Assembly (NCBI GenBank): GCA_023657425.1
Contig: JAGTJW010000001.1
Coordinates: 1,798,001 to 1,862,000, forward strand
DNA length: 64,000 nucleotides
Source of the DNA: Ideonella sp. WA131b
GTDB lineage: Bacteria; Pseudomonadota; Gammaproteobacteria; Burkholderiales; Burkholderiaceae_C
Direction of reading: 5' to 3'
The notes under the pieces were generated by a model. It worked only from the letters and a program-made list of their open reading frames with translations, was not told the DNA's origin and made no database searches. Positions 21,934 to 53,873 of this stretch are shown here, one piece after another (within the stretch, counting starts at the first letter, position 1; each line of letters opens with the position of its first letter). The position numbers and the translations under genes were made by a program.

Positions 21934-22725
21934 ATGACCGACGAAGCCCTGATCCTGACCGACCTCCGTGGCGACGGCCCGCGCCGCACCGCGCTCGTCA
22001 CGCTCAACCGCCCCAAGCAGCTCAACGCCCTGAACGACGCGCTGATGGACCAGCTCGGCGAGGCGCTCCTGCGCTTCGACGCCGATGCCACCATCGGCTG
22101 CATCGTCATCACCGGCAGCGAGCGCGCCTTCGCGGCCGGCGCCGACATCGGCGCCATGGCCGACAAGACCTTCGCCGAGGCCTACGGCGGCGACTTCATC
22201 ACCCGCAACTGGGAGACCCTGCGGCGCATCCGCAAGCCCGTGATCGCCGCGGTGTCGGGCTTCGCCCTCGGCGGCGGTTGCGAGCTGGCGATGCTGTGCG
22301 ACTTCATCATCGCCGCCGACACGGCCCGGTTCGGCCAGCCCGAGATCAAGCTCGGCATCATCCCCGGCGCCGGGGGCACGCAGCGCCTGCCGCGCGCCGT
22401 GGGCAAGGCCAAGGCCATGGACATGGTGCTGACGGCGCGCATGATGGACGCCGCCGAGGCCGAGCGCGCCGGCCTGGTGAGCCGCGTCGTGCCGGCCGAC
22501 AAGCTGCTCGACGAGGCCCTGGCCGCCGCCGAGGCCATCAACGCCATGAGCGGACCCAGCGTGATGATGGCCAAGGAGTGCGTGAACCGCGCCTTCGAAA
22601 GCGGCCTGGCCGACGGCGTGAGCTACGAGCGCCGCCTGTTCCACGCCCTCTTTGCCACCGCCGACCAGAAGGAAGGCATGGCCGCCTTCGTGGCCAAGCG
22701 CAAGGCCGAGTGGCAGCACCGCTGA
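21934..22725 (+). CDS. enoyl-CoA hydratase/isomerase
   Basis: This 263-residue crotonase-family enzyme hydrates trans-2-enoyl-CoA in fatty-acid or aromatic-acid degradation. It has the CoA-binding AAGADIGAM segment, the oxyanion-hole motif [15 protein letters not shown], and both catalytic glutamates (Glu in GCELAM, Glu-region in [16 protein letters not shown]). No partner beta-oxidation gene is adjacent. Its last ~104 bp are duplicated downstream at 22918-23021, and a shorter tail at 22750-22771. Confidence 0.93.
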
Positions 22726-23258
22726 GCGCTGGGTCGCCTACCGTTCGGGCTGAGTGGCAGCACCGCTGAGCGCGGTGCCGTCAACCGTTCGGGCTGAGCC
22801 TGTCGAAGCCCTTGCAGCGGGTCGCCGGGCCCTTCGACAAGCTCAGGGCGAACGGTAGAGGGCTCAGGGCACCAGCCAGCGCGCGCCCTCGGCGCAAAAA
22901 CGCGGGCGGCGGCGTGTGTTGCGAGCGGCGCCTGTTCCACGCCCTCTTTGCCACCGCCAACCAGAAGGTAGGCTTGGCCGGCTTCGTGGCCAAGCGCCAG
23001 GACGAGTGGCGGCACCGCTGAGCGGCGGGGCCGTCAACCGTTCGGGCTGAGCCTGTCGAAGCCCTTGCAGCGGGCCGCCGGGCTCGCCAACCGTTCGGGC
23101 TGAGCCTGTCGAAGCCCTTGCAGCGGGTCGCCGGGCCCTTCGACAGGCTCAGGGCGAACGGCGGAGGGCTCAGGGCGAACGGCAGAGGGCTCAGGGCGAA
23201 CGGCAGAGGGCTCAGGGCACCAGCCAGCGCGCGCCGTCGGCGCCAAAGCGCGCGCGGC
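22622..23258. repeat. tandem duplication of the convergent gene junction, with REP-like hairpins
   Basis: Copy 1 (22622-22910) runs from the end of the enoyl-CoA hydratase through REP-like palindromes into a 47-bp piece matching the 3' end of the PNPOx-like gene. Copy 2 (22918-23258) repeats this order: decayed hydratase tail, palindromes, intact PNPOx 3' end. The palindrome arms are CCGTTCGGGCTGAGCC... and its complement around TTCGACAGGCTCAGG. A 21-bp unit is repeated three times at about 23154-23216 and supplies the PNPOx stop codon. No intact gene lies in the 22726-23211 gap. Confidence 0.85.
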
Positions 23259-23787
23259 GGTGGCCGTCGCGGTGCAGCTCCAGCCAGTCGGTGCTCTGCA
23301 CCTGGCACTCCAGCACGGCAAAGTGGCTGCGGCTGCCGCGGTCGGGCGCGGCCTGGCGGTCATCGCCCAGCGTCGTGCCGGGCGGCAGCGGCGCCAGATA
23401 GTCTTGTGCCGCGGGTGTGAGCTGCAACTGCGCCCAGCGCGACGACACCTGCAGCCCGCCGGTGTGCAGCACCAGCGCCACCTGCAGCCGCAGCTGCCAG
23501 CCCAGCGCCGCCGACCACAGCACCAGCACACCCTGCGGCCGGCGCTCGGCCTGCTGCGCCTTGGCGCTGCGCGCGTCGGTGTAGACGAGCAGGCGGCGGG
23601 CCTCGGGATCGCAGTCGCGCAGCACCACGGTGCGCGCCTCCGGGTGCACGCCGTCGGCCTGGGCCGACACGGTGGCCAGCGTGGCCAGTCGCCAGGCGTG
23701 GTCGCGCTCGCGCACCGCGCGCGCAAGCTCGTGCCACAGCGCGGCTTCGATCTCCGGCAGCGCCTGCAGCCGTGCGGGCGCTGCCAT
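23212..23787 (-). CDS. pyridoxamine 5'-phosphate oxidase-like FMN-binding protein
   Basis: The 191-residue protein resembles the PNPOx-like split-barrel flavoproteins, with the FMN-contact segment EARTVVLRDCDPEARRLLVYTDARS near residue 50 (read here as motifs TVVLR and YTDARS) and a C-terminal WLELHRDGHRRARF. Substrate unknown; classical PNPO is not implied. Its stop codon lies inside a REP-like repeat, so the present C-terminus may have been reshaped by the duplication. It is convergent with the enoyl-CoA hydratase gene. Confidence 0.8.
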   Translation of the reverse strand: MAAPARLQALPEIEAALWHELARAVRERDHAWRLATLATVSAQADGVHPEARTVVLRDCDPEARRLLVYTDARSAKAQQAERRPQGVLVLWSAALGWQLRLQVALVLHTGGLQVSSRWAQLQLTPAAQDYLAPLPPGTTLGDDRQAAPDRGSRSHFAVLECQVQSTDWLELHRDGHRRARFGADGARWLVP

Positions 23788-23820
23788 GCGCGGTTCAGCC
23801 TTCTCGGCGCAAGGCCGGCG

Positions 23821-29972: not shown

Positions 29973-29976
29973 CCGC

Positions 29977-40143: not shown

Positions 40144-41981
40144 TGCTCGTCGACGCCGCGGTGGTGGCGCTGTGCTGGAACGCCACCTACCTGTTCCGCC
40201 TGGGGTTCGAGCGATGGTTCGTGGCACGCGCCGGCTACGACACGTGGGTGCTGGCCGGCGTGGTGCTGGCCTACGTGGCGGCCTTCTGGCTGCTGCGCGT
40301 GCCCCGGGGGCTGTGGCGCTTCTCGGGCTTTGGCGACGTGCAGCGCTTCGCGCTGGCCTGCGCGCTCGCCGGTGGCCTGAGCGCGGCGGTGATCATGGCC
40401 GCGGGGCTGGTGAAGATCCCGCGCTCGGTGCTGGCGCTGCACCCGGTGGTCACGCTCATGGGCCTGGCGCTGGTGCGCATGAGCTACCGCATGTTCTACG
40501 AGCACCTGCGCGGCCGCATCGCCGGGCCGGTGGGCGAGGTGCGGCGCGCCGTGGTGCTGGGGGCCGGCGCGGCGGCGCGGCTGCTGCTGGCAGGCCTGCG
40601 CGCCCAGGGCTGGGCCGTGCTGGGCCTGCTGGACGACGATCCCGGCAAGCAGGGTGCCGTGGTCGGCGGCGTGCCCGTGCTCGGCCCGCTGCACACGCTG
40701 CCGCATCACGCCGGTCCCGGCAGCGAGGGCGCGGCCACGCACATCGTGGTGGCCATGCCCTCGGCCACGCGGGCCGAGCGCCGCCGCGCCTTCGACCTGG
40801 CCGCGGCCACCGGCCTGCCTGTGCTCACCGTGCCCAGCGCCGACGAGCTGCGCACCGGCGCGGCCCGCGTCGAGCGGCTGCGCGACATCGAACCGGAAGA
40901 CCTGCTCGGCCGCGAGCCCGTGGTGCTGGACGAAGCCGGCGTCGCGGCCACGCTGCGCGGCCGTGTGGTGCTGGTCACCGGTGCCGGCGGCAGCATCGGC
41001 AGCGAGCTGTGCCGGCAGGTGGCGCGCTTCGGGCCGGCGCGGCTGGTGCTGGTGGAGCTGTCGGAATTCAACCTCTACACGCTCGAGCAGGAGCTGGCCG
41101 AGGCCTACGCGCAGGTGCCGTGCGTGCCGCTGATCGGCGACGTGAAAGACGCCGCCTGGATGCAGGCCACGCTGGCCCGCTGGCGGCCGACCGTCGTCTT
41201 CCACGCCGCGGCCTACAAGCACGTGCCGCTGATGGAGGGCCGCAATGCCGCCGCCGCCCTGGCCAACAACGTGCTGGGCAGCGTGTTCACGGCCGAGGCG
41301 GCGGCGCTGGCCGGTGTGGAGCGCTTCGTGCTCATCAGCACCGACAAGGCCGTGAACCCCAGCAACGTGATGGGCGCCAGCAAGCGCGCGGCCGAGCTGG
41401 CCGTCACGGCGCTGGCCGCGCGCCACCCGGGCACGCGCTTCATGGCCGTGCGTTTTGGCAACGTGCTGGGCAGCAGCGGCAGCGTCATCCCGCGTTTCAA
41501 GGAGCAGATCGCACGCGGCGGCCCCGTGACCGTGACGCACCCGGACATCATCCGCTACTTCATGACCATCCCCGAAGCCGCACGCCTGGTGCTGCAGGCC
41601 GGCGCGCTGGGCGAGAGCGGGCAGGTGATGGTGCTGGAGATGGGCGAGCCGGTGAAGATCGTCGACCTCGCGCGCGACCTCATCCGCCTGTCGGGCCACA
41701 CGGTGGATGAGATCGCCATCGAGTTCACCGGCCTGCGCCCCGGTGAGAAGCTCTACGAGGAACTGCTGGCCGACACCGAGGCCACGCTGCCCACCCCGGT
41801 TGAGCGGCTGCGCGTGGCGCGCATCGCGGCCGGCGATGCGGCGGCGCTGGGCAGCTGGTTGGCCCAGGCGCAGGCCGTGGGCGCCGACGACGAAGCGGCG
41901 CGTGCGCTGCTGCGGCGCTGGGTGCCGGAATACCGCCCGGCTGCCGATGATCCCGCCCGTTCAACCCACGGCAGCACATGA
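40139..41981 (+). pseudogene. membrane-bound UDP-sugar 4,6-dehydratase (WbpM/PglF/CapD family), 5'-truncated by IS21
   Basis: The 3' part encodes about four N-terminal helices and the dehydratase domain: NAD motif VTGAGGSIGSELC, FHAAAYKHVPLME, and STDKAVNPSNVMGASKR, where Met replaces the usual Tyr as in this family. Only the first ~28 residues and part of helix 1 are lost. GTG 40161 could restart translation, so residual activity is possible. The product would start UDP-QuiNAc4N-type sugar synthesis with the DegT aminotransferase. Confidence 0.88.
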
Positions 41982-42016
41982 AGAGTGCCCCGATCACTGG
42001 CATCGCCGGCCGAGAC
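41903..42016. repeat. direct repeat A: dehydratase end / gmd start junction (decayed gmd start)
   Basis: This stretch aligns with 43108-43214, roughly four of five bases matching by eye. It contains the dehydratase 3' end and then ATG 41978 with MKSAPITGIAGRDG, a decayed version of the gmd start [14 protein letters not shown]. The second copy supplies the real gmd start. The toxin-antitoxin block lies between the copies. Confidence 0.8.
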
Positions 42017-42055
42017 GGCCTTGCCAAGGTTTGCCAAGACATCTAGGCTGCCGGC

Positions 42056-42319
42056 ATGAGCACAATGAACATTTCCTTGCCCGACAGCCTCAAGGCATTC
42101 GTCGACGAACAGGTCAGCCAGCGTGGCTACGGCACCAGCAGCGAGTACGTGCGCGAACTGATCCGCCGCGATCAGGATCGGCTGCAACTGCGCAACAGGC
42201 TGCTGGCGGGCGCTTCGTCGGCATCGACAGCGCCGGTGAACGAGACCTACTTCGAAGGCCTGCGCGAGCGGGTTCGCGGCGCGGCCCAGGTGGCGAGCAA
42301 GACACGCAGCCGGTCGTGA
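42056..42319 (+). CDS. parD: ParD-like ribbon-helix-helix antitoxin
   Basis: The 87-residue protein opens with an RHH fold, MNISLPDSLKAFVDEQV, and GTSSEYVRELIRRDQDR, as in type II ParD antitoxins. Its TGA overlaps the toxin GTG (GTGA, 42316-42319), the usual order and coupling for parDE. It is intact and would bind ParE and its own promoter. Confidence 0.88.
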   Translation: MSTMNISLPDSLKAFVDEQVSQRGYGTSSEYVRELIRRDQDRLQLRNRLLAGASSASTAPVNETYFEGLRERVRGAAQVASKTRSRS

Positions 42320-42645
42320 AGCCCAAGCCCGTCGTCCCGCGCGACAAGGCCCGGCAGGATGTCGAGGATGCACTCAGGACCTACATGGCCGAAGACGCCG
42401 AGGCTGCCGCGCTCGGTTTCATCGACGCCTTGGAGCAGGCCTACGCGCACATCGGGCGCTATCCTGCGACTGGGTCACCTCGCTACGCGCATGAACTGAA
42501 TCTGCCGGGCCTGCGCTCCTGGCCGCTGACGCGCTACCCCTACCTCGTCTTCTATGTCGAGCGCTCGGACCGCGTCGATGTCTGGCGTGTGCTGCACGGC
42601 CAGCGCGACATCCCTGCGTGGATGCAGAACCCGGAAGACATCTGA
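42316..42645 (+). CDS. parE: ParE-family toxin (RelE/ParE superfamily)
   Basis: The 109-residue protein has the family features ALGFIDALEQAYAHIGRYPATGSPRYAHEL, read as GFIDALEQA and RYPATGS, and the C-terminal YPYLVFYVERSDRVDVWRVLHGQRD core, read as YLVFYVE and RVLHGQRDIP. ParE toxins typically poison DNA gyrase. The gene appears complete, unlike the other toxin genes nearby. GTG start set by overlap with parD. Confidence 0.87.
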   Translation: MKPKPVVPRDKARQDVEDALRTYMAEDAEAAALGFIDALEQAYAHIGRYPATGSPRYAHELNLPGLRSWPLTRYPYLVFYVERSDRVDVWRVLHGQRDIPAWMQNPEDI

Positions 42646-42689
42646 GGCGGCAGCAAGCCTGCGGGCTGCGTGGTCGTGCGCGTCATGCA

Positions 42690-42944
42690 TCAAGGCGCCA
42701 TGCGCGCCACCAGCGCTGCCAGGCGTGTTTGCCAACCCGGGCCACTGGCTCGCCATCGTTCCAGGGCCTGGGGCTCCACACGCACGGTCAAACGGGCCTT
42801 CACCACCGCCGACTTGGGCCGACCACGCAGCTTGGCTTGCAGCGTGGCGGGCAGCTCGGGCAAGCGCCTGGCAGCGGCAGCCTCGTCAGCCGTCCATTCG
42901 GGGTTGTCGTCGTCAACCGGATGGGTCTTGGGTTTCCTGCTCAT
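42690..42944 (-). CDS. brnA: BrnA-like antitoxin
   Basis: The 84-residue protein has a charged N-terminus (SRKPKTHPVDDDNPEWTADE) and a C-terminal ribbon-helix-helix region RLTVRVEPQALERWRASG, matching BrnA/COG3514 antitoxins. ATG 42944 lies inside the brnT remnant, an overlap typical of brnTA. The antitoxin looks intact although its toxin is deleted. Confidence 0.82.
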   Translation of the reverse strand: MSRKPKTHPVDDDNPEWTADEAAAARRLPELPATLQAKLRGRPKSAVVKARLTVRVEPQALERWRASGPGWQTRLAALVARMAP

Positions 42945-43047
42945 GGATGCGCACCTCTCCGAAATCGAGCTGCCCTGCGAGTGCAAACGACAGTCCGCGT
43001 TCCCGGATGTTGCGTTCGTTCTTTGCAGGGTCGAAGCTGACCTCCAT
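42913..43047 (-). pseudogene. brnT toxin remnant with in-frame internal deletion
   Basis: The 44-codon frame begins MEVSFDPAKNERNIRERG, the normal BrnT N-terminus, and about residue 24 jumps to FGEVRIHEQE, resembling the BrnT C-terminus (REVRxYEQ). About half of a usual ~90-residue toxin, including the beta-sheet core, is missing, so the protein should be inactive. It overlaps brnA in the usual toxin-then-antitoxin order. It is too short for most gene callers. Confidence 0.75.
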
Positions 43048-43107
43048 GGCTATTTATTGTGCGCACGAAAAGTCGACTGTCAAGGCCCGGGCGTCATGGC
43101 TGCCCGC

Positions 43108-43214
43108 GCGCGCTGCCGCGGCGCTGGGTGCCGGCTGACCACCCGGCCACCGATAATCCCGCCAGTTCAACCTACGGCATCGCATGAAGAAGGCACTCAT
43201 CACCGGCGTCACCG
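43108..43214. repeat. direct repeat B: dehydratase end / gmd start junction (functional gmd start)
   Basis: Second copy of the junction duplication; see 41903-42016. It begins with a fragment of dehydratase 3' coding sequence (GCGGCGCTGGGTGCCGG) and ends in the first codons of gmd. Confidence 0.8.
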
Positions 43215-44314
43215 GCCAGGACGGCAGCTACCTCGCCGAGTTCCTGCTGGAGCAGGGCTACGAGGTGCACGGCATCAAGCGCCGCGCCTCGATGTTCAAC
43301 ACCCAGCGTGTCGACCACATCTACGAAGACCCGCACATCGACAACCGCCACTTCGTGCTGCACCACGGCGACCTGACCGACGGCAGCAACCTCACGCGCA
43401 TCCTGCAGCAGGTGCAGCCCGACGAGGTCTACAACCTGGGCGCGCAAAGCCACGTGGCCGTGAGCTTTGAGGCGCCGGAGTACACGGCCGATGTCGACGC
43501 CCTGGGCACGCTGCGGCTGCTCGAGGCCATCCGCCTGCTGGGCCTGAAGGACCGCACGCGCTTCTACCAGGCCAGCACGTCCGAGCTCTACGGCCTGGTG
43601 CGCGAGACGCCGCAGACCGAGACCACGCCCTTCCACCCGCGCAGCCCCTACGGCGTGGCCAAGCTGTACGCGTACTGGATCACCGTCAACTACCGCGAGG
43701 CGTATGGCCTGTACGCCTGCAACGGCATCCTGTTCAACCACGAGAGCCCGCGCCGTGGCGAGACCTTCGTCACGCGCAAGGTCACGCGCGGCCTGGCCCA
43801 GGTGGCGCAGGGCCTGGCGCCGTGCCTGTACATGGGCAACCTGGGCGCCCTGCGCGACTGGGGCCACGCGAAGGACTACGTGCGCATGCAGTGGCTGATG
43901 CTGCAGCAGAGCCAGCCTGAGGACTACGTCATTGCCACCGGCGTGCAGCACTCGGTGCGCGACTTCATCGGCTGGACGGCCCAGGAGCTGGGCCTGCAAC
44001 TGCGCTTTGAGGGCGAGGGCGCCGACGAGCGCGCCGTGGTGGCCGCCGTGCACGACGCCGCCAAGGCCCCGGCGGTGAAGCCGGGCGACGTGGTGGTGCG
44101 TGTCGACCCGCGTTACTTCAGGCCCGCCGAGGTGGAGACGCTGCTGGGCGACCCCGCCAAGGCCAAGCGCCAGCTGGGCTGGGAGCCGCGCATCACCGCG
44201 CGCGAGATGTGCGCCGAGATGGCCGCCGAAGACCTGAAGCTGGCGCGCCGCGCCGCGCTGCTGCGCGCCCACGGGCACGACGCGCCCGTGGCCAGCGAGG
44301 AACGCGGCGCGTGA
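43184..44314 (+). CDS. gmd: GDP-mannose 4,6-dehydratase
   Basis: Gmd converts GDP-D-mannose to GDP-4-keto-6-deoxymannose. The 376-residue SDR protein has the nucleotide motif [16 protein letters not shown], the [11 protein letters not shown] segment, catalytic STSELYG with [11 protein letters not shown] (YxxxK), and [16 protein letters not shown]. Its stop overlaps the fcl start (GTGA, 44311-44314), so the two-step GDP-fucose pathway is translationally coupled. Confidence 0.96.
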
Positions 44315-45291
44315 ACGCCGCCGCGGACCTGGACGCGCCGGTGTTCGTGGCCGGCCACCGCGGCATGGTGGGCTCGGCCATCGTGCGGCGGCTGGCGGCG
44401 CTGGGCCACCGCCGCATCCTCACGGCCCCGCGCGAGCAGCTCGATCTGGCCGACCAGGCCGCCGTGCGCGCCTGGCTGCAGCGCGAGCGGCCCACCGCCG
44501 TGGTGCTGGCAGCCGCCAAGGTGGGCGGCATCCAGGCCAACAACAGCTACCCGGCCGACTTCATCGCCGAGAACCTGCAGATCCAGCTCAACGTCATCGA
44601 CGGGGCCCACCGTGCCGGCGTGCAGCGGCTGCTGTTCCTGGGATCGAGCTGCATCTACCCCCGCCTGGCGCCGCAGCCCCTGCGCGAAGACGCGCTGCTC
44701 ACGGGCCCGCTCGAGCCCACCAACGAGCCCTACGCGGTGGCCAAGATTGCCGGCATCAAGCTGTGCGAGAGCTACAACCGCCAGCACGGGCGCGACTACC
44801 GCAGCGTGATGCCCACCAACCTGTACGGCCCGGGCGACAACTTCCACCCCGAGCACAGCCACGTCATCCCGGCGCTGATGCGCCGCTTTCACGAGGCCGC
44901 GCAGCGCGGCGACGCCGAGGTGGTGGTGTGGGGCAGCGGCACGCCCATGCGCGAGTTCCTGCACGTGGACGACATGGCCGCGGCCAGCGTGCACGTGCTG
45001 CACCTGCCGGCCGAGGTGTACCGCCAGCACACGCAGCCCATGCTCAGCCACATCAACGTGGGCACCGGCGTGGACTGCAGCATCCGCGAGCTGGCCGAGA
45101 CGGTGGCCCGCGTCACGGGCTACGCTGGCCGGCTGGTGTGGGATGCGAGCAAGCCCGACGGCACGCCGCGCAAGCTGCTGGACGTATCGCGCCTGGCCGC
45201 GCTGGGCTGGCGCGCGGGCATCCCGCTGGAACAGGGCCTGCGAGAGACCTACGCGTGGTTCTGCGCGCACGCGGCGCACGTGCGCGGCTGA
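44311..45291 (+). CDS. fcl: GDP-L-fucose synthase
   Basis: Fcl epimerises and reduces the Gmd product to GDP-L-fucose. The 326-residue SDR has [40 protein letters not shown], the catalytic YAVAKIAG and [19 protein letters not shown] 44311 overlaps the gmd stop. A decayed second copy of its 3' part lies at 52028-52506. Confidence 0.96.
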
Positions 45292-45316
45292 AGCGGGGCT
45301 TGCCCTGCTTGCCAAA

Positions 45317-45376
45317 GCCCCCGCGGGCACTTCGACAGGCTCAGTGCGAACGGTTTTTTGGCGACGGCGCCCGGCG
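45317..45376 (+). repeat. 60-bp dispersed repeat, copy 1
   Basis: A block starting GCCCCCGCGGGCACTTCGAC and running through GGCGACGGCGCCCGGCG recurs at 47372-47431 with only a few changes. It contains one arm of the REP-like palindrome. Confidence 0.8.
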
Positions 45377-45877
45377 TCTTGCAAACCATCCGTTCTTGAC
45401 CCCGAGCCCTCGCAAACCATCCGTTCTTGACCCCGAGCCCTCGCAAACCATCCGTTCGGGCTGAGCTTGTCGAAGCCCCTGTGGGCACTTCGACAGGCTC
45501 AGTGCGAACGGTTTTTTGGCGACGGCGCCCGGCGTCTTGCAAACCATCCGTTCTTGACCCCGAGCCCTCGCAAACCATCCGTTCTTGACCCCGAGCCCTC
45601 GCAAACCATCCGTTCGGGCTGAGCTTGTCGAAGCCCCTGTGGGCACTTCGACAGGCTCAGTGCGAACGGTTTTTTGGCGACGGCGCCCGGCGTCTTGCAA
45701 ACCATCCGTTCTTGACCCCGAGCCCTCGCAAACCATCCGTTCTTGACCCCGAGCCCTCGCAAACCATCCGTTCGGGCTGAGCTTGTCGAAGCCCCTGTGG
45801 GCACTTCGACAGGCTCAGTGCGAACGGTTTTTTGGCGACGGCGCCCGGCGTCTTGCGAACCATCCGTTCTTGACCCC
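45328..45877. repeat. 158-bp tandem repeat, about 3.5 copies, with REP-like hairpins
   Basis: Units start at 45328, 45486, 45644 and 45802, an exact 158-bp period, and are almost identical. Each unit includes two copies of a 31-bp subrepeat containing CCATCCGTTCTTGACCCC. It also has a large hairpin of 24-bp arms with a 12-nt loop (45452-45511, 45610-45669, 45768-45827). Open frames across it on the minus strand are repeat artefacts. No gene was recognised from 45292 to 45916. Confidence 0.92.
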
Positions 45878-45916
45878 GCGAGGCCAAGGCGCCCGCCAGC
45901 AAGCCGGCGGACCCCG

Positions 45917-46075
45917 ATGTCCTCCCGTAGCCTGCCCGTCAGGCTCTCCAAGAATGCGCGCCAGGACTTCATCGACATCCATCACAAGGAGTGCCATCAC
46001 GTGGGCAAGCGTATGGCGGTCGGGCAGGCGGCCGAGCCGGAGATTTCGCAGCCCAAGGCAGAGAGCCTGGCCTGA
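45917..46075 (+). pseudogene. ParE/RelE-like toxin, N-terminal fragment
   Basis: ATG 45917 opens SSRSLPVRLSKNARQDFIDI, which resembles the start of ParE-type toxins. After about 21 residues it runs into a 75-bp direct repeat and loses similarity. The expected downstream beta-sheet is absent. It is probably an inactive fragment. Confidence 0.6.
45979..46054 (+). repeat. 75-bp direct repeat flanking the nucleotidyltransferase cassette, copy 1
   Basis: The block starting CCATCACAAGGAGTGCCATC recurs at 47301-47375; the first ~61 bases are identical. The copies bracket the GSU2403-type gene. Confidence 0.9.
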
Positions 46076-46103: not shown

Positions 46104-46160
46104 ATGACGACGGTGCAAATCAACTTGCCCGATGAACTGGCACAGAAGGCGGCCAGCGCA
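46104..46160 (+). pseudogene. antitoxin N-terminal fragment
   Basis: ATG 46104 reads MTTVQINLPDELAQKAASA, the characteristic start of a small RHH-like antitoxin, then loses similarity. The nucleotidyltransferase gene, on the other strand, ends inside this fragment. A matching C-terminal piece (AMLREQLRRRAG) lies 4.5 kb away at 50632-50667. Confidence 0.6.
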
Positions 46161-47178
46161 TCGCTGCCCGCAGCGCATCAACAGCTGCCGGATGGGCGGC
46201 AAGAAGCTCCTGCAGCGCAGGCAGCCGCGTCCTGGCCGCCTCCATGACGGGCCCGGGGGCCGCCGCGGCGGCTTGCTCCAGCGCCCCGTCTTCCAGGTCT
46301 GAGAGCACCGCGGCCAGAACGGCTGCCTGCTGCAGGTCTTTGCGGGCCTTGGCCGTGTCAGAGTGCCGCTGGGTGCTGGAGTACAGCTTGTGCCACAAGA
46401 AGCGTGCGGGGTCAGGCAGGTTGGCCGGTACGCAATGGCTGCCCGCCAGCACGGCACCGCCGCGTGGCGCCTGCAGCAGGTAGTCGAAGAACGGCACGGT
46501 CTGCGCATGCCAGGCCAGCTCGGGCACGGGCACGACGCTGCCCAGCACGGCGCCCGGCACCAGCACGTCGACCCTAAGGCCTTCTGCCCCGGGCCTCTTC
46601 ACGGAGGTCGACGGTGCGCCGGACGCGAGGCCGGGCACCGGGAAGAACTCCAGAAGCGTGGCCTGCACCGTCTGCAGGAAGGAAACCGGTGCTGCCAGCT
46701 TCAGCGCTTGCCGTCGCGCCAGGTCGATGTCTTGCGTTCTGGCGGCAACAGCCACCGCGCCCAGCTCGTTGAGCAGCGACACGAAGGCCAAGGAACCGAC
46801 GACTGCCAGCCCCCCGGCAAAAAGCTGCCGGTTGTGCAGCTCGACGAGCAGCCGCGCCGCGTCTTTATCGGCAACCTGCATCCCGAGTGCGCGAAGCTGC
46901 CGCACCTGGGACTGCATCCAGACAGCTGCATCCATCCGCGTCTGCATCGCCTGCAGGGCAGCGCTGTCGGATTGGCGACAGACGAAGTCTTCCACCTCCT
47001 TGCCCGCAACCGACTTGTAGCGCCGATACCAGTAGCCTTGCCCCTTGATGGATCGCAGCGTCAGGGTCCCGGGGGTGCCGGGCAGCAGCTCAAGCTCTGT
47101 CCGCGCCCGTTCCTTGACCTCGGCATACTGGGTGTGGAAGTTCAGCTCGAGGCGGCGGTAAAGGGGCGTCGCGGGCAT
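46120..47178 (-). CDS. GSU2403-family nucleotidyltransferase-fold protein
   Basis: The 352-residue protein has a conserved N-terminal IKGQGYWYRRYKS region. A nucleotidyltransferase core follows (GGLAVVGSLAFVSLLNELG, then TQDIDLARRQ, with the Asp pair of the fold), then LRVDVLVPG and HCVPANLPDPARFLWHKL. This fits the GSU2403/NTP_transf_8 family, whose role is unknown but recalls AbiEii-type toxins. The last ~12 residues read through a foreign antitoxin fragment, so the true C-terminus is lost. A palindrome lies upstream. Confidence 0.8.
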   Translation of the reverse strand: MPATPLYRRLELNFHTQYAEVKERARTELELLPGTPGTLTLRSIKGQGYWYRRYKSVAGKEVEDFVCRQSDSAALQAMQTRMDAAVWMQSQVRQLRALGMQVADKDAARLLVELHNRQLFAGGLAVVGSLAFVSLLNELGAVAVAARTQDIDLARRQALKLAAPVSFLQTVQATLLEFFPVPGLASGAPSTSVKRPGAEGLRVDVLVPGAVLGSVVPVPELAWHAQTVPFFDYLLQAPRGGAVLAGSHCVPANLPDPARFLWHKLYSSTQRHSDTAKARKDLQQAAVLAAVLSDLEDGALEQAAAAAPGPVMEAARTRLPALQELLAAHPAAVDALRAAMRWPPSVPVHRAS

Positions 47179-47213
47179 AGGCGTTCTGCTGTGGCGGCGC
47201 GAGTCTAGCCCAT

Positions 47214-47244: not shown

Positions 47245-47300
47245 ACGCGATCTTCCGGCTGGCCTGCCCCCATCCAGCAGCAAGGCCGGGCGGACTCGCT

Positions 47301-47375
47301 CCATCACAAGGAGTGCCATCACGTGGGCAAGCGTATGGCGGTCGGGCAGGCGGCCGAGCCGGGGATTCGCAGCCC
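47301..47375 (+). repeat. 75-bp direct repeat flanking the nucleotidyltransferase cassette, copy 2
   Basis: Matches 45979-46054; see there. Immediately followed by the dispersed 60-bp block at 47372-47431. Confidence 0.9.
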
Positions 47376-47647: not shown

Positions 47648-49687
47648 ATGAAAACGCAACTCCCCCCGGCCGCTTCCGCCTTGGGCCGGCGCGTGCACCT
47701 GCTTCGATTGGGGCTGACCGCAGCGGCCTTGCTTGCAATGGCAGCCTGCGGCGGTGGCGGCGGCGATGCGGCCGGCAACGCCGCAGCCAACACCAACCCC
47801 ACGGTGAGCGCGCAGGTGCAAGACCTGCAGCCCAGCGACCCGGCCGACTCCGTTGGCGTCTTCGTGCAGCTCCAGACCGCAACACCCACCAGCGGCGCCA
47901 GCGTCACCGCCGACGATGCGCGCGAGCTGGCCCAAAGCCAGTTTCTGGCCGATCTGGCTGAGGCCGCCAAGCGCCCGGCCGTCGGTGCGAGCACCGGCAC
48001 CAGCTGTGACGTGAGCGCCTTGTCGGCCCGCATCGCCCAGGCCTACAAGCCCAAGAGCGGCACGGCGGTGCGCATCGAACTCTCGGCCTGCGAACTCGGC
48101 CTGCTGCCCAAGATCGGCAACGTCAAGGGCGTGTTCGCCGACATCCCGCTGAGCACCAACCAGGTTGCCACCAGCAACACGGTAGCCGCCCTGAACAAGG
48201 CGGTGGTCGACGGCTTTGACGGCAGCAAGGCCTGGCCCAGCTACACGGTAGGCGGCAACGCCCTGCAAGCCGTGGGTGCCGGCACCGTGATCGCGGTGCT
48301 CGACACCGGTGTGGACGAGCGGCACCCCGCTTTCAACGGTACTGGCAAGGTGCTCAAGGGCGCGTGCTTCTCGACACCTTCGACGGGCGGCATCGGCTTT
48401 TGCCCCAACGGCGCCACCGTCGACACGGTCAGCGCGGAGGCGGGCCGCAGCTGCGTAGACAAGTTCGGCAGCGCCAACGGCGCCCAGGCCCTGGGCGGTG
48501 GTTGCGGCCACGGCACCAGCATGGCGGCCACCGCGGGCATGGCCTACATCAACGGCGCGGTCACCGCAGGTGGCCTGGCCAAGGCGGCCTCGATCCTGCC
48601 GGTGCAAGTGTTCAACGGCAGCACCGGCAACGGCAAGATCAGCGTGTCTGCCAACTCCGGCGATCTGCTGGCCGGTATCGAGTGGGTCACGGCACAAGCC
48701 CAGGCCCGGCTTGCTGCGGGCCAACCGCCCATCGTGGCCATGAACCTCAGCCTGGGCGGCGGAAGCTTCAGCGCCGCCTGTGATTCAGATTACGTCGGCA
48801 GCCTGTTCTTCACCGCCTTCTCCAACCTGCGCGCCCAGGGCGTGGTGCCCGTGGTGGCCGCAGGCAACGCCTACAACACCACGGCGATCTCGTTCCCGGC
48901 CTGTGTGAGCAACACCGTCAGCGTGGCCGCCACCAAGCTGGGCGGCACCACCCCGGCGAGCTACACCAACTTCAGCTCGCAGGTGAAGCTGTTTGCCATT
49001 GGTGGCGACATCGAAGCCCGGTACAGCATGCCCACGCCCTGCCCGTCGGCCAGCCAGGGCTTCGAGTGCTGGGCCCCCGGCGCCGGCACCTCGCCGGCCA
49101 CGGCCATGGTCTCTGGCGCCGTGGCGGTGCTGCGCAGCCTGAAGCCCGGTGCCAGCCTGGCCGAGATCGAGGCGGCGCTGCTCACCAGCGACAAATCGCT
49201 CACCCTCAACGGCCAGACCCGGCCCTTGCTGCGCACCTCCAAGGCGGGAGCCCAGCTCTTGGGGGTGGCGGGTGTGGACACCCCCCCAGCGCCGCCGCCA
49301 CCACCGCAACAGCCACCACCGCAACAGCCACCGCCACCGCCACCGCCCGTGGCCGCGGAACTCACCCGGCTGTGCGTTTACAGCGGCACCAACTACACCG
49401 GCCGCCGCGCCTGCGGGGTGTTCGCCAAGGGCAGCGCTTTGGTCTCCACGGGCTCCTGGCAGGTGGCGTCGCTGCGCTTCTTTGCCTTTGACGTCGCCAA
49501 CCCGACCGCCGCAGCCCCGCTCGCCGCCAACCCCTTCCCCACGGTCACCCTGTACGACACCCTGACGCGGATCTCCCGCAACGGCGCTCAGGGCGTGGTG
49601 GTCAAGGCTGACTCTGCCGATCTCACCGGCATCCTGCCGTCCAGGGGCCAGGTGCGAATGCTCAGTTTCGAGTGGCCCGCCAACTGA
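47648..49687 (+). CDS. S8 (subtilisin-like) serine protease lipoprotein with C-terminal crystallin-like domain
   Basis: The 679-residue protein has a signal with lipobox LAMAAC, so it is probably outer-membrane anchored. The S8 catalytic triad is visible: D219 in VLDTGVDERHP, H288 in GCGHGTSMA, S482 in GAGTSPATAMVSG. A Pro/Gln-rich linker (about 540-570) joins a C-terminal domain with YSGTNYTGRRACGVF that resembles beta/gamma-crystallin or I36 folds. Substrate unknown. Its stop shares a base with the next start (TGATG), coupling it to the barrel protein. Confidence 0.9.
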   Translation: MKTQLPPAASALGRRVHLLRLGLTAAALLAMAACGGGGGDAAGNAAANTNPTVSAQVQDLQPSDPADSVGVFVQLQTATPTSGASVTADDARELAQSQFLADLAEAAKRPAVGASTGTSCDVSALSARIAQAYKPKSGTAVRIELSACELGLLPKIGNVKGVFADIPLSTNQVATSNTVAALNKAVVDGFDGSKAWPSYTVGGNALQAVGAGTVIAVLDTGVDERHPAFNGTGKVLKGACFSTPSTGGIGFCPNGATVDTVSAEAGRSCVDKFGSANGAQALGGGCGHGTSMAATAGMAYINGAVTAGGLAKAASILPVQVFNGSTGNGKISVSANSGDLLAGIEWVTAQAQARLAAGQPPIVAMNLSLGGGSFSAACDSDYVGSLFFTAFSNLRAQGVVPVVAAGNAYNTTAISFPACVSNTVSVAATKLGGTTPASYTNFSSQVKLFAIGGDIEARYSMPTPCPSASQGFECWAPGAGTSPATAMVSGAVAVLRSLKPGASLAEIEAALLTSDKSLTLNGQTRPLLRTSKAGAQLLGVAGVDTPPAPPPPPQQPPPQQPPPPPPPVAAELTRLCVYSGTNYTGRRACGVFAKGSALVSTGSWQVASLRFFAFDVANPTAAAPLAANPFPTVTLYDTLTRISRNGAQGVVVKADSADLTGILPSRGQVRMLSFEWPAN

Positions 49688-50460
49688 TGGCCGGCGCGCC
49701 GTGGGCCGGCGCGCTGGCTTGCGGCCTGGCAGGGCTGGCGCTGGCGCCCGGTGCGTGGGCGCAGAGCGCACCGGGGGGGCTGCGGCTGGGCTTGTCTGCG
49801 GGCTACACCCACTACAGCGAGCCGCAGATGCAGCTTGCTGGTGCCCACCTGGGGCTGCATCTTCGGTGGGCGCAACCCCGCGGGCTGGAGAACTGGGCGT
49901 TCGAGGCCCATGCTCTGCTGGGCGCGCCCGACTACAGCAGCCCCGTCAGCGGAACGATCGACCGACGCCCCACCGTCCAGACCGCGTGGCGCGCGCTCTA
50001 TGGCAAGCCGGTGGGCACCGAGCCGGCGGCCCGCTTCGAGGCCGGGCTGGAATGGCAGGCCTACTACAACGACCTGCGGGGCACCACCAGCCGTGGCGAT
50101 GTGGGCTACGAGCGCGAACGCTACGGCCTGTGGGCGGTGGCCGCCTACCAGGCACCGGTGGCGGGCGCGCAGGCCTGGGGCGCACAGAGCTGGCGGCTCG
50201 AGGCAGCGGTGCTGTTGCAGGGCTGGGCAGTGTCGCGGCTTTCGCAGGTATCGACCGTCTACGACGACACGGTGAACCGCCAGAACCGTGGCCTGGCGCT
50301 GCGCGCGCAGCGCAGCTACCGCCACGCGCCCGGCTGGTTCACGCCCTACGTCAGCGTCAGTTGGCTGGATGATTCAGACATCAAGCGCAAGCCCAGCTAC
50401 ACGGTGAAGGAACCCACCAACACCACCTGGCAGCTCGGCGTGAAGTGGTTCTGGCAGTAG
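49687..50460 (+). CDS. putative outer-membrane beta-barrel protein
   Basis: The 257-residue product has a signal peptide ending APGAWAQ and a mature part with alternating aromatic/hydrophobic strands. It ends LGVKWFWQ, with aromatic residues near the C-terminus typical of barrels. No family was recognised. ATG 49687 overlaps the protease stop; GTG 49672 is possible but gives a poorer signal. Coupling to the protease suggests a joint envelope role, which is inference. Confidence 0.7.
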   Translation: MAGAPWAGALACGLAGLALAPGAWAQSAPGGLRLGLSAGYTHYSEPQMQLAGAHLGLHLRWAQPRGLENWAFEAHALLGAPDYSSPVSGTIDRRPTVQTAWRALYGKPVGTEPAARFEAGLEWQAYYNDLRGTTSRGDVGYERERYGLWAVAAYQAPVAGAQAWGAQSWRLEAAVLLQGWAVSRLSQVSTVYDDTVNRQNRGLALRAQRSYRHAPGWFTPYVSVSWLDDSDIKRKPSYTVKEPTNTTWQLGVKWFWQ

Positions 50461-50492
50461 CCGGCAGGCCGCGGGGCCGTGCACGCCGATTC

Positions 50493-50619
50493 CAGGCTGC
50501 GCTGGTGCGAGCCGCGCAAGAAGATGCCGAACGGGCCGCCAACCCCAAGGCCCCCGCGCCACGGCCCACGGCCTGCGCGCCTGGGCCTGAGCGAGGTGAG
50601 CGAACTCGCGCGCGCGGCC
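50493..50619 (+). repeat. partial duplication of the 51273-52022 gene (internal part)
   Basis: This stretch aligns with 51519-51647, both containing GAACGGGCCGCCAACCCCAA and CTGAGCGAGGTGAGCG. It is an out-of-context fragment and has no start or stop of its own. Confidence 0.85.
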
Positions 50620-50631
50620 GGCTCTGCGAGG

Positions 50632-50667
50632 GCGATGCTGCGCGAGCAGCTGCGCCGCCGTGCAGGA
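50632..50667 (+). pseudogene. antitoxin C-terminal fragment
   Basis: Codons read AMLREQLRRRAG, the typical C-terminal piece of antitoxins that start MTTVQINLPDELAQKA. The N-terminal piece is at 46104-46160. It lies directly before the Phd promoter region. Confidence 0.5.
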
Positions 50668-50678
50668 GCGTATATTGA

Positions 50679-50696
50679 ACTGGTCAGGACACCAGT
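50679..50696. promoter_or_regulatory. inverted-repeat operator of the phd-like gene
   Basis: ACTGGT, six bases, ACCAGT forms a perfect palindrome overlapping a promoter-like TTGAAC (50675-50680) and CATTGT (50697-50702). It lies 17-34 bp before the antitoxin start. Antitoxins of this type usually repress their own promoter through such sites. Confidence 0.6.
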
Positions 50697-50712
50697 CATT
50701 GTGAGGTGAGCC

Positions 50713-51102
50713 ATGCAGACGTGGCCTATCCAAGACGCCAAGGCGCGGTTCAGCGAGTTCCTTGAGACTTGCCTTGCCGAAGGCCCGCAGATGGTGACGA
50801 AGCGGGGAGCTGAGGTTGCGGTTCTCGTTCCGGTGGACGAGTGGCGCCGACTCCAGGCTGCGGCGCGGCCGAGCCTCAAGCAACTGCTGCTCTCCGAGCA
50901 AGGACGTGGCGACCTGGTGGTTCCAGCTCGAGGTGCCGCGCGTCGACACGCGCTCAGCTCGATGCTGGCTGTGCAAGGCCTCTTTCCAGGCGCAGGCCCC
51001 ACCCGGTCAGAGAGAAACGGCATCCCGCTGTTGCTTGGCCGCCGGCCTGCGGTGCCCGTGACCATGGAGTTGGTCAACCGACTCCGCGACGAGCAGCCAT
51101 GA
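50713..51102 (+). CDS. chimeric Phd::VapB-type antitoxin
   Basis: Residues 1-75 are a Phd/YefM antitoxin (MQTWPIQDAKARFSEFLE, TKRGAEVAVLVPVDEWRRL). The next ~22 residues match nothing. From about residue 98 the chain reads RNGIPLLLGRRPAVPVTMEL and LVNRLRDEQP, which matches the C-terminus of VapB antitoxins. The gene therefore looks like an in-frame fusion of two antitoxin genes at a deletion. It could still fold at its Phd end. A deleted vapC follows. Confidence 0.7.
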   Translation: MQTWPIQDAKARFSEFLETCLAEGPQMVTKRGAEVAVLVPVDEWRRLQAAARPSLKQLLLSEQGRGDLVVPARGAARRHALSSMLAVQGLFPGAGPTRSERNGIPLLLGRRPAVPVTMELVNRLRDEQP

Positions 51103-51106
51103 CGCG

Positions 51107-51229
51107 CTTCGTCTGGGCGTCAACGTCCTGATCGCGCTGGTGGACAGCCTCAGCTTGGTTGACAACGCCTTGGTGGATGCATCAGTGCTGTCGAGCCACA
51201 GCCGCGTGACGGACTGGCTCTGCCAGTAG
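51107..51229 (+). pseudogene. vapC PIN-domain toxin remnant with internal deletion
   Basis: The frame reads LRLGVNVLIALVD, like the VapC N-terminus LLDVNVLIALVD but with the first catalytic Asp now Gly. It then jumps to LSLVDNALVDASVLSSHSRVTD, as in the VapC segment before its last catalytic Asp. Most of the middle is gone, and the ATG upstream (51099) is out of frame. It must be inactive. Confidence 0.7.
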
Positions 51230-51272
51230 CCACCAAGCCACGGGCCGGCGCGGTTTTGGATAAACCCCGCCC

Positions 51273-52022
51273 ATGAAACCCGCACGTCTTCTGCTGGCTG
51301 CAGCCTGCCTGGTGGCCTTGCCCGTGCCCGTGCACGCCAACCCCCTGCAAGAGCTGCGCGACACCCTCGGCCGCCTCGCCGGCCACACGCCGCTGAAGGC
51401 CAGCGTGCACATCAAGAGCGAAGACCGCAGCTCCGACGGCGACGAGACCGAGACGAACACCGGCCTGGCCAGCGTGCAGCTGGAAGACGGGCCGCAAGGG
51501 CTGCGCCTCATCTACCCCCAGGCGGCGCTGGTGCGGGCCGCGCAAGAAGGCGCCGAACGGGCCGCCAACCCCAAGGCCCCCGCACCCACGGCCAACGGCC
51601 TGCGCGCCCTGGGCCTGAGCGAGGTGAGCGAACTCGCGCGCGCGGCCGCCACCCTGCAGCGCGAGCTTGCCAGGGCCGTGTTCAAGGCCGAACGCAACGA
51701 GCCCTGGCAGGGGCGCCCGGCCCGGCTGCTGGTGTTTGACGTGCCCCCGGCGAAGAAAGACAAGTACGTCAAGAAGCACGAGTCGACGCTGGAGGTGTGG
51801 ATGGCCCCCGACGGCACGCCCCTGGCCAGCCGTGCGCGCCACCGCATCGAGGGCAGCGCCTTCGTCGTCATCAGCTTCGAGGCACAGAGCACCGAGGAAC
51901 AGGTCTTTGCCGTCCTCGGCGAGCGCCTGGTGGCCACGCAGCGCATCAGCGCCCAGAGCGGCTCGGGCATGGGCCACAAGGGATCGAGCCGTAGCGAGTA
52001 CACGCTGCGGGCGCTGGATTGA
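51273..52022 (+). CDS. hypothetical exported protein
   Basis: The 249-residue product has a signal peptide ([22 protein letters not shown]) with likely cleavage after VHA. The mature part is rich in charged residues, with a helical [15 protein letters not shown] centre and a beta-rich C-terminal part. No family was recognised. Two pieces of it occur elsewhere: 50493-50619 and 53607-53643. Its signal lysine/arginine start and clean ATG support a real gene. Confidence 0.65.
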
Positions 52023-52027
52023 TGCGG

Positions 52028-52506
52028 GGGGCTCTTGAGCCCATGAACGAGCCGTATGCGATTGCCAGAATTGCCGGCATCAAGCTGTCCGAGAGCCACA
52101 ACCGCAAGCACGGCGCGACTACCGCAGCGTGATGCCCACCAACCTGTACGGCCCGGGCGACAGCTTTCACCCGGAGGACAGCCGCGTCCTCCCAGCGCTG
52201 ATGCGCCGCTTTCACCAGGCCGCGCAGCGCGGCGACGCCGAGGTGGTGGTGGTGGGGGGCAGCGGCACGCCCATGGGAGAGGTCTTGCACGTGGATGACA
52301 TGGCCGCGGCCCGCGTCACGGGTTTTGGTGGCCGGCTGGTGTGGGACGCGAGAAAGCCCGACGGCCCGCCGCGCAAGCTGCTGGACGTGTCGCGCCTGCC
52401 GGCCCTGGATTGGCGCGTGGGCATTTCGCTGGAACAGGGCCTGCGCGACACCTCTGCGTGGTTCCGGGATCACGCGGCGCACGTGCGTGGCTCAAAGGGG
52501 CTCGCC
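52028..52506 (+). pseudogene. decayed second copy of the fcl 3' half
   Basis: The stretch aligns with fcl from about 44703 to 45302. Compared with fcl it lacks one base in the CACGG-CGCGAC region (frameshift) and about 120 bp between GACATGGCCGCGGCC and CGCGTCACGGG. The stop codon TGA is changed to TCA. Conserved pieces include [11 protein letters not shown] and [15 protein letters not shown]. It has no working start. Confidence 0.88.
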
Positions 52507-52671
52507 AGTTTTGACTGGGTGGCGCCCTAAGCGCCGGAGCCGGCGTGCGCGCCGCGCAGGTAAACTCATTGGGCTGCTTCGCCTAGCTGGCGCTGGAGGG
52601 AGCGGTTCGATGGCCTGCGCTGATTTCGCACCAGTCGCGAGCGACCCACCCGACGACAAGACTCCCAGCCG

Positions 52672-53418
52672 ATGACCCAAGCGTTGTTCGATCCCGCCGC
52701 CCGCATGCTGGGCGAGTATCTCCCGTACGACGGCGGCATCGAGTTCTTCGGCCGTGTCGCCACCGTGCTCAAGCCGAGCGACGTCGTCGTTGACCTGGGC
52801 GCCGGCCGGGGCGCCTGGTTCTACGAAGACCGCAGCGAGCCGCGGCGCCGCCTGCGCGACTTCAAGTCGATGGTAGCGCGCGTGATCGGGCTCGATGTCG
52901 ATCCAGTCGTGCTGACCAACCCCACCACCACCGAGAACGCCGTTATCCGCGACGACCGACTGCCGCTGGACGACGCCTCGGTCGACGTCATCGTCTCCGA
53001 GTACGTGCTAGAGCACATCGAGAAGGTGCCAGTGTTCGTGGCCGAGATCGATCGCGTGCTCAAGCCCGGTGGCTACTTTTTCGCCCGCACGCCGCACAAG
53101 TACCACTACGTCTCGGTCGCGGCACGCTGGGTGCGCAACGCCAGCCACGTGGCCTTCCTCTCGCGCGCGCAGCCGCACCGCAAGGCCGAGGACGTCTTCC
53201 CTACCGCTTATCGCCTCAACACGATGGCAGACATCCGCCGTAACTTCGAACGTTATGAGGACTTCAGCTACCTTTACGCGTCAGAGCCGAGTTACTTTTT
53301 CGGCAGCCGGCTCGGCTACCGACTTTTCTCGCTGCTGCACGCGCTGCTGCCAGCGGTCTGTGTCGCCAACATCTACGTCGTGATGCGCAAGCCGCTGTCG
53401 GCGGCCCGCGCCCGCTAG
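52672..53418 (+). CDS. class I SAM-dependent methyltransferase
   Basis: The 248-residue protein has motif I VVDLGAGRGAWFY, IGLDVDPVV as the acidic post-I, and the motif SEYVLEHIEKVP with DRVLKPGGYFFARTP. This is the Methyltransf_11/23 pattern. Substrate unknown; position among sugar-nucleotide genes suggests a glycan. It is the first intact gene after the fcl pseudogene. Confidence 0.87.
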   Translation: MTQALFDPAARMLGEYLPYDGGIEFFGRVATVLKPSDVVVDLGAGRGAWFYEDRSEPRRRLRDFKSMVARVIGLDVDPVVLTNPTTTENAVIRDDRLPLDDASVDVIVSEYVLEHIEKVPVFVAEIDRVLKPGGYFFARTPHKYHYVSVAARWVRNASHVAFLSRAQPHRKAEDVFPTAYRLNTMADIRRNFERYEDFSYLYASEPSYFFGSRLGYRLFSLLHALLPAVCVANIYVVMRKPLSAARAR

Positions 53419-53873
53419 CCTAGGCAGGCATCGCCTTGGCCGAACCCGACGACGTGGTCGCAAGCTGGCCAACGGCGCCGACACTTTGGGGCTGGCGGCG
53501 CTGCCGCGTTCACTGGTGTTCATCAGCGGGGTGTTTGGCATCCCGTACTGCGGCCACGTCAGCTACCTCGCCGGGGCGCAAGCACTCAGCGCCCTCCTGC
53601 GAGAGCACGTCAAGAAGCACGAGTCGACGCTGGAGGTGTGGATCCGAGCCATAGAGGCGGGGCGGCCCTGGTCCAGCAGCTGGCGTTGACGCTCGGGACT
53701 GCGCTTGGCTGAGCTCGCTTGAGTGACCGATTCGCCTTGGCTGCGGCGCCTCGCAGGCCCTGCGTGGCCGCACGTGCTGTCCGCCAAGCGATCACTGCAG
53801 TCAGATAAGATTCTGGGTCGCCCTGCGTTTTCGCAGGGTAGGTTCTTGTGTAGATGAACGGGAGAGATGCTCT
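53419..53873. other. intergenic scrap region with a fragment of the 51273 gene
   Basis: The 455-bp gap has no intact gene. Positions 53607-53643 are identical over 37 bp to 51766-51802. A short frame around 53490-53605 reads LGLAALPRSLVFISGVFGIP, not recognised. A hairpin at 53821-53838 precedes the next gene. Confidence 0.6.
53821..53838 (+). terminator. short hairpin before the GME-like gene
   Basis: CCCTGCG, TTTT, CGCAGGG forms a perfect 7-bp stem 36 bp upstream of the start. It lacks a T-run, so it may be a weak terminator or a 5'-leader structure. Confidence 0.35.

What the first reader, a model, noticed from the sequence alone, without database searches (positions are those of the whole stretch)
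22622..53643. Recurrent cassette capture at gene junctions with duplicated flanks
The same architecture appears at least four times: a duplicated junction without cargo (22.6 kb), with parDE/brnTA (41.9 kb), with a nucleotidyltransferase between 75-bp repeats (46 kb), and nested within a larger fcl duplication (44.7-52.5 kb). Flank copies are 75-600 bp and diverged to different degrees, so events occurred at different times. No integrase or transposase lies in these blocks. This is compatible with repeated replication- or repair-mediated capture that favours TA-type cargo. Toxins are then lost while antitoxins persist. I know no named system that does this, but each part could also arise by ordinary tandem duplication.
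Basis: inference. Interest (0 to 1): 0.7.

Follow-up and report, generated by a model that had tools for sequence, protein, structure and literature searches.

The report
Toxin-antitoxin genes bracketed by gene-end copies
Small toxin-antitoxin gene pairs in this bacterium and its relatives sometimes sit between two copies of the end of a neighbouring gene, a kind of insertion known for restriction-modification genes but, as far as I could find, not described for toxin-antitoxin genes.

Summary
The repeats are real. Self-comparison gives direct repeats around short inserts at 41.9-43.2, 44.7-52.5, 46.0-47.4 and 50.5-51.6 kb. The 22.6-kb case is a cargo-free tandem duplication and does not belong with the rest. 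In 536 kb of this genome outside an integron array I judged one other repeat pair comparable.
G031, the nearest relative by fcl, has the capD/gmd junction duplicated too, but with vapBC inside instead of parDE+brnTA. Site patterns suggest that this duplication predates the species split (4:0:0), whereas the two fcl duplications arose independently and in place (26:1:1).
In the genus and order, non-integron TA loci are spanned by direct repeats in 17 of 159 cases against 0 of 126 control genes (p=3e-5). Three genomes carry three different TA modules at the 3' end of orthologous ABC-transporter genes.
Best reading: TA modules inserted with long target duplication, as reported for restriction-modification systems, formed by ordinary recombination and kept by addiction. 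A dedicated machine is not shown.

The parts
40161..41981 (+). capD-like polysaccharide biosynthesis gene (PF02719), the upstream target gene of block B; its 3' end is the part duplicated
41899..42019 (+). Block B, upstream copy of the capD/gmd junction: intact capD end plus a decayed gmd start
42020..42646 (+). parDE module with upstream region; the same unit lies at other loci in G003 (93%), G078, G016 and G024, and the four matches start between 42007 and 42021, at the end of the duplicated junction
42690..42986 (-). BrnA antitoxin (PF14384), open
42913..43047 (-). BrnT toxin remnant: start and end of the gene present, middle deleted in comparison with the G020 homologue
43105..43225 (+). 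Block B, downstream copy: decayed capD end plus intact gmd start
43184..44314 (+). gmd, GDP-mannose 4,6-dehydratase (PF16363)
44209..45291 (+). fcl-like epimerase ORF (probable start near 44311, by eye), target gene of block C
44710..45304 (+). Block C, upstream copy: 3' part of the intact fcl
45307..45878 (.). 158-bp tandem repeat, 3.6 copies, with REP-like cores
45978..46054 (.). Block E, left copy of the 75-bp repeat (lies in remnants read by eye as toxin-like)
46120..47178 (-). nucleotidyltransferase-fold gene (PF12281) between the 75-bp repeats
47300..47375 (.). Block E, right copy
47648..49687 (+). S8 subtilisin-type protease, cargo of the large fcl bracket
49672..50460 (+). outer-membrane-barrel-like protein (PF13505 below its cut-off), upstream neighbour of block D
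50492..50620 (+). Block D, upstream copy: fragment of the gene at 51273-52022
50713..51102 (+). Phd/YefM antitoxin (PF02604) whose tail matches the vapB of G031 in DNA
51100..51214 (+). VapC remnant; 51142-51214 is 94.5% identical to G031 vapC
51273..52022 (+). gene without a Pfam match, target of block D; one match each in the four relatives that hold it
51518..51648 (+). Block D, downstream copy, inside the intact gene
52034..52506 (+). Block C, downstream copy: decayed 3' end of fcl
53604..53643 (+). 40-bp second copy of 51763-51802
22608..23260 (.). Block A: tandem duplication of the enoyl-CoA hydratase / pyridoxamine-oxidase-like gene junction, no cargo, REP-like cores

Best explanation
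Blocks B and D, and in part C, are toxin-antitoxin modules that entered the chromosome with long target duplications: a small TA unit (about 0.6 kb) landed at the end of a host gene and 100-600 bp of that host sequence was copied, so that the module sits between two copies and the host gene stays intact. Likely steps, inferred: a DNA fragment carrying a TA module joins one side of the site by homology and the other illegitimately on a sister chromosome (homology-facilitated illegitimate recombination), or by one crossover or replication-template switching, giving target-cargo-target. Such repeats normally recombine away; loss of a live TA module is selected against, so TA-bearing brackets persist until the copies have diverged, after which toxins decay. 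No dedicated recombinase is needed.
For: Shown: (1) in the window the repeats are the neighbour genes' own ends, one copy intact and one decayed. (2) The capD/gmd duplication is shared with G031 by site pattern (up|down 4, species 0, cross 0), yet the cargo is vapBC there and parDE+brnTA here. (3) The fcl duplications in the two species are independent and derive from each species' own fcl (26:1:1); G031's bracket holds TumE with an HVO_A0114-type gene and a MazE-type/PIN pair. (4) Cargo ends match TA units: with a query running across the border, parDE homology to four other loci starts at 42007-42021, the duplicated stretch ending at 42019; brnTA homology to G020 ends 17 bp before the other copy here and 27 and 30 bp from the repeats of G020 itself; G031 vapBC homology ends 35 and 51 bp from its repeats. 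(5) Enrichment: 17 of 159 TA loci against 0 of 126 controls, p=3.3e-5; TA sets gathered after the hypothesis 10 of 90, p=1.2e-4; in the 6-kb TA set (38 loci after dropping L336 and L350) a repeat pair spans the TA gene in 4 of 38 and points 1.5-2.4 kb away in 0-1 of 34-37. (6) Three genomes (G029, G010, G104) carry vapBC, another vapBC and brnTA at the 3' end of orthologous ABC-ATPase genes with 319-, 151- and 165-bp duplications; in G029 and G104 the copy is closest to the genome's own gene (97.8 against at most 89.7%; 92.0 against at most 80.0%, among the orthologues compared).
Against: ParE homologues elsewhere are not flanked (0 of 27 unique loci in the ParE set besides the window's own, none of 8 in the later set), so the effect is carried by the Brn and Vap families. 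About nine in ten TA loci show no flanking repeat. Repeats flank non-TA cargo too (S8 protease and OMP in C, a nucleotidyltransferase in E, L046). In G010 the copy is slightly nearer another species (90.7 against 88.7%), so not all copies are clearly made in place. No single-copy capD/gmd junction appeared in the matches listed. The support for the shared capD/gmd duplication rests on four sites. In one search the TA signal is 3 of 36 still at +0.9 and +1.2 kb, and one VOC control locus has an off-centre repeat pair. Neither the recombination step nor the role of addiction was observed.
Confidence: 0.6

Rival explanations
1. Ordinary tandem duplications arise everywhere; TA modules later enter the junction, or the pairing of repeats and TA is only survivorship in a variable polysaccharide locus.
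For: Block A is a cargo-free tandem duplication; one non-TA repeat pair (L046) exists in the genome sample.
Against: TA units end 0-51 bp from the repeat ends at the three sites examined, which a later random insertion would not give; 0 of 30 acyltransferase loci of an O-antigen-type family and 0 of 67 VOC loci are flanked.
Confidence: 0.2
2. Single-crossover integration of TA-bearing circles or fragments that already carried a piece of the same target gene from another lineage (donor-arm model); the repeats then also serve for excision and re-entry.
For: Copies are often only 81-92% identical; the G010 copy is nearer G027 than its own gene; cargo differs at the shared capD/gmd duplication as if exchanged through the repeats.
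Against: The fcl copies in the window and in G031 (26:1:1) and the G029 and G104 copies derive from the host's own gene. A donor of the same species is not excluded.
Confidence: 0.15
3. Integron or IS/transposon activity with decayed ends.
For: The closest relative of the G031 vapBC in the 81 genomes (G028, 87% aa) is a cassette between attC-like sites, and the window's genome has an integron array.
Against: The repeats at block B are coding ends of neighbours, not attC, as are those of C and D; attC-like loci were counted apart; no transposase or integrase domain in the ORFs scanned.
Confidence: 0.05

Closest known systems
Insertion with long target duplication of restriction-modification systems (Nobusato et al. 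2000; Furuta et al. 2010; known to me only as cited in passages of PMC3874152 and PMC3031569)
   Same: An addictive gene unit without transposase inserted between long, variable direct copies of host sequence
   Different: Cargo here is type II TA modules; brackets recur at the same host gene in different species; cargo differs at a shared bracket
A 1577-bp duplication around an ICE at the PabI locus of Helicobacter pylori ELS37 (passages of PMC4615327)
   Same: Duplicated host segment sandwiching inserted DNA; its authors infer one homologous and one non-homologous junction
   Different: The insert is a 50-kb conjugative element with its own target duplication; one case
Homology-facilitated illegitimate recombination (abstract of PMC3240628)
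   Same: Foreign DNA enters by homology at one end and illegitimate joining at the other; single crossing-over is the other fate reported there
   Different: Not observed here; proposed only as the route
Transformation-made tandem duplications in pneumococcus (PMC3784515, abstract and passages)
   Same: Duplication of the host's own chromosome in connection with incoming DNA; unstable
   Different: Those characterised are about 100-900 kb and use chromosomal repeats; one 3.3-kb duplication without repeats is left unexplained there
TA cassettes of sedentary chromosomal integrons (recalled; seen here in L176 and L179)
   Same: Same TA families; each module lies between direct repeats
   Different: There the repeats are attC sites; here they are neighbour-gene ends

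Membership tests
Insertion with long target duplication (as named for RM systems) | Unit flanked by long direct repeats of variable length | tested here: met
   in the window (75-600 bp); elsewhere (43-728 bp)
Insertion with long target duplication (as named for RM systems) | Repeat is host target sequence, single in an empty-site relative | tested here: inconclusive
   The block D gene has one copy in 4 of 4 relatives holding it, but its upstream neighbours gave no DNA match there; no single-copy capD/gmd junction in the matches listed
Insertion with long target duplication (as named for RM systems) | Cargo is a restriction-modification system | tested here: not met
   Cargo is TA modules; hence 'works like', not 'is a member'
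Insertion with long target duplication (as named for RM systems) | No IS or integrase at the unit | tested here: met
   for the ORFs scanned
Integron gene cassette | attC site at each border | tested here: not met
   the block B repeats are capD/gmd coding sequence
Composite transposon | Flanking IS copies | tested here: not met
   for the ORFs scanned
Homology-facilitated illegitimate recombination | One homologous and one illegitimate junction | not testable with these tools
   needs the donor molecule or a fresh event

The most novel reading that the evidence does not exclude
Type II TA modules are themselves mobile units that enter host gene ends with long target duplication, without any recombinase, and their addiction stabilises the otherwise unstable duplication; the bracket then acts as a standing site at which one TA module can be exchanged for another.
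Probability: 0.3. Interest if true: 0.75.

Novelty: new variant of a known kind. Interest (0 to 1): 0.55.

Why it matters
How chromosomal TA modules move without visible mobile elements is an open question. A small TA unit bracketed by copies of a host gene end gives a recognisable scar, makes the question countable in any genome set, and ties TA mobility to the route proposed for restriction-modification genes. It also gives a testable reason why TA modules accumulate: brackets without an addictive cargo should be lost.

Tried and rejected
Rejected: block 22.6 kb as part of the same system (no cargo; REP-rich tandem duplication). REP-like sequence as the common cause: its core occurs 46 times in 556 kb and, in the window, only at blocks A and E; of nine flanked loci elsewhere that I scanned none has it, though one core lies beside the G031 capD/gmd bracket (L033 8124). 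Integron origin of the window brackets (no attC). L350 as a positive (repeats look like paralogous sensor domains). The ABC-transporter orthologue set (30 loci) could not serve as a control, because the protein appears to hold two similar ATPase domains that give repeats of their own. The capD loci (20) were not used as controls, since capD is the window's own target gene: 1 of 20 was flanked (L150, 460 bp at 95%), and by eye its cargo is a DUF433/DUF5615-like pair; counting the set would make controls 1 of 146, two of them being the window and G031 themselves. The fcl loci (29) were kept as controls although fcl is the target in block C and they were fetched before the hypothesis. 0 of 6 gene2 loci were flanked (two of the six are the window itself); not counted.

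Rows dropped before the main count: of 151 TA loci, 13 duplicates; of 138 unique, 5 attC-type plus L253 and L336 (integron-like) and L208 and L178 (the window and its G031 counterpart); 129 remain, 14 flanked. The order-wide BrnT set (30 loci, 3 flanked) and the acyltransferase controls (30) were not de-duplicated. Weak positives (43-67 bp, or 74% identity in L249) are kept in the 17; with at least 100 bp and 85% identity it is 9 of 159 (p=0.005), and 5 of 90 in the later sets (p=0.012). TA loci were the best-scoring members of each family plus lower-ranked ones picked by me from the lists, not a random sample; the extra VOC controls were picked the same way.

Paper searches whose listings showed no report of TA modules with long target duplications: (titles and abstract starts read; one search listed 20 of 49 hits; most subscription papers are not held). 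Passages were read in PMC2654758, PMC3031569, PMC3874152, PMC4615327 and PMC3784515, the abstract in PMC3240628.

It also corrected the BrnT remnant's coordinates.
Full report
WHAT IS IN THE WINDOW. The window lies at 1,798,001-1,862,000 of contig 1 of a 3.87-Mb, three-contig genome. B: 121 bp (81%) of the capD-like/gmd junction around 1.1 kb. C: the 3' part of fcl (44710-45304) again at 52034-52506. D: 131 bp (94%) around a Phd/VapBC remnant at 50.5-51.6 kb. E: 75 bp (97%) around a nucleotidyltransferase. A (22.6 kb) is a tandem duplication of a gene junction with no cargo.

LOCAL BACKGROUND. In 28 stretches of the same genome (556 kb) the same scan found tandem repeats, repeats I took for paralogues (two from translations, the others from their pattern only), an integron array (L176) and one comparable pair (L046, 62 bp). 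The window's cluster at 41.9-53.6 kb is therefore unusual for this genome.

ANATOMY OF B. The upstream copy keeps the end of capD and has a decayed gmd start; the downstream copy has a decayed capD end and the intact gmd start. Between them lie parDE, both genes open, and brnA with a brnT that lacks its middle. The parDE unit is 93% identical to a stretch at another locus of G003 and 75-84% to stretches in three further genomes; with a query running across the border the four matches begin at 42007, 42017, 42020 and 42021, the duplicated junction ending at 42019. The brnTA unit matches one in G020, which there is bracketed by 154-bp copies of another gene end; that gene reads by eye as a lytic transglycosylase.

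RELATIVES. G031 (91% DNA identity over capD to fcl; deposited as CAIKLM010000158.1) has the same junction duplicated over 192 bp, with an open vapBC inside. Over the 121 shared columns four sites join the two upstream copies against the two downstream copies, none joins copies by species and none crosses: the duplication seems older than the species, and the cargo differs. That vapBC is the counterpart of the remnant at block D here (89-94.5% in DNA). For fcl the opposite holds: 26 sites group copies by species, 1 by position, 1 crosses, so each species duplicated fcl on its own. G031's bracket is 1,351 bp at 95.6% and holds a TumE/HVO_A0114-type pair, a vapC remnant, a MazE-type/PIN pair and an ATPase. 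The target gene of D has one copy in each of the four other genomes, of 81 searched with the window's own, that hold it.

GENERALITY. I took TA loci (VapC, ParE, BrnA and BrnT families) from 81 genus genomes and asked whether a direct repeat pair of at least 40 bp spans the TA gene. Of 151 loci 138 are unique; 5 are attC-type and 4 more were set aside (two integron-like, the window and its G031 counterpart), leaving 14 flanked of 129. BrnT loci from 250 genomes of the order gave 3 of 30, one with a 522-bp, 91% repeat (L476). Controls: fcl 0 of 29, VOC proteins 0 of 67 unique, acyltransferases of an O-antigen-type family 0 of 30; sets left out of the controls, with their results, are in Tried and rejected. 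Fisher p is 3.3e-5 for all, 1.2e-4 for the TA sets gathered after the hypothesis was formed, 0.005 for repeats of at least 100 bp and 85%. ParE homologues other than the window's own are not flanked (0 of 27 unique, and none of 8 in the later set), so the effect depends on the family. In the set with 6 kb of DNA the repeats centre on the TA gene, though numbers are small (4 of 38 at the gene, 3 of 36 at +1.2 kb, 0-1 at 1.5 kb and beyond).

A HOT SPOT. G029, G010 and G104 carry three different TA modules (two vapBC, one brnTA) at the 3' end of orthologous ABC-ATPase genes with 319-, 151- and 165-bp duplications. In the 30 orthologue loci fetched (G104's was not among them), the 28 other than G029 and G010 show, within about 1.5 kb, only weaker repeats spaced about 1 kb apart, which I read as the two ATPase domains. 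In G029 and G104 the extra copy is nearest the genome's own gene; in G010 it is slightly nearer another species.

HOW IT PROBABLY WORKS. Shown: copies of host gene ends, small TA units between them, recurrence at the same genes, in-place origin for four of five copies tested (fcl in the window and in G031, G029, G104; not G010). Inferred: one-sided homology plus illegitimate joining, or single crossover or template switching, makes target-cargo-target; addiction keeps it from recombining away; with age the copies diverge and toxins decay. I tested neither the joining step nor the addiction step.

WHAT IS KNOWN. [quoted passage not shown] also PMC3031569, passages). Of the primary papers, Furuta 2010 is not held and Nobusato 2000 was not looked up. 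A 1577-bp duplication around an ICE in H. pylori is described in passages of PMC4615327. Homology-facilitated illegitimate recombination is from the abstract of PMC3240628, transformation-made duplications from the abstract and passages of PMC3784515. The listings showed no paper reporting the pattern for TA modules, but most subscription papers are not held.

VERDICT. Real, recurrent and TA-biased; it works like insertion with long target duplication, with TA modules as cargo. A new variant of a known kind, with no evidence for a dedicated machine.

Noticed in passing
L176 (C2:1050001-1070000); BrnT hits at C1:6480-9017, C1:2183744-2186281, C2:1070894-1073431: A sedentary integron array with attC-like repeats of about 130 bp; BrnT hits with identical scores near both ends of contig 1 and the end of contig 2 suggest that the contigs break inside repeated integron arrays.
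   Followed up: partly
L179 (G028:C33): A vapBC 84% identical in DNA to the one at the G031 capD/gmd site sits as a cassette between attC-like sites: the same TA unit in two kinds of bracket.
   Followed up: partly
window 45307-45878: 158-bp tandem repeat in 3.6 copies just after fcl, with REP-like cores (CTTCGACARGCTCAG type).
   Followed up: partly
L150 (G066): The capD-like gene of another relative is duplicated over 460 bp (95%) around a DUF433/DUF5615-like pair, found without looking for TA genes (families by eye).
   Followed up: partly
L046 1596-4023 (C1, downstream of gyrB): 62-bp direct repeat (92%) around a VOC-like protein and a regulator: a bracket without TA genes (names by eye).
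   Followed up: no
L054: A contig filed under Silanimonas carries an fcl 88% identical in protein to this one: transfer or mis-binning.
   Followed up: no
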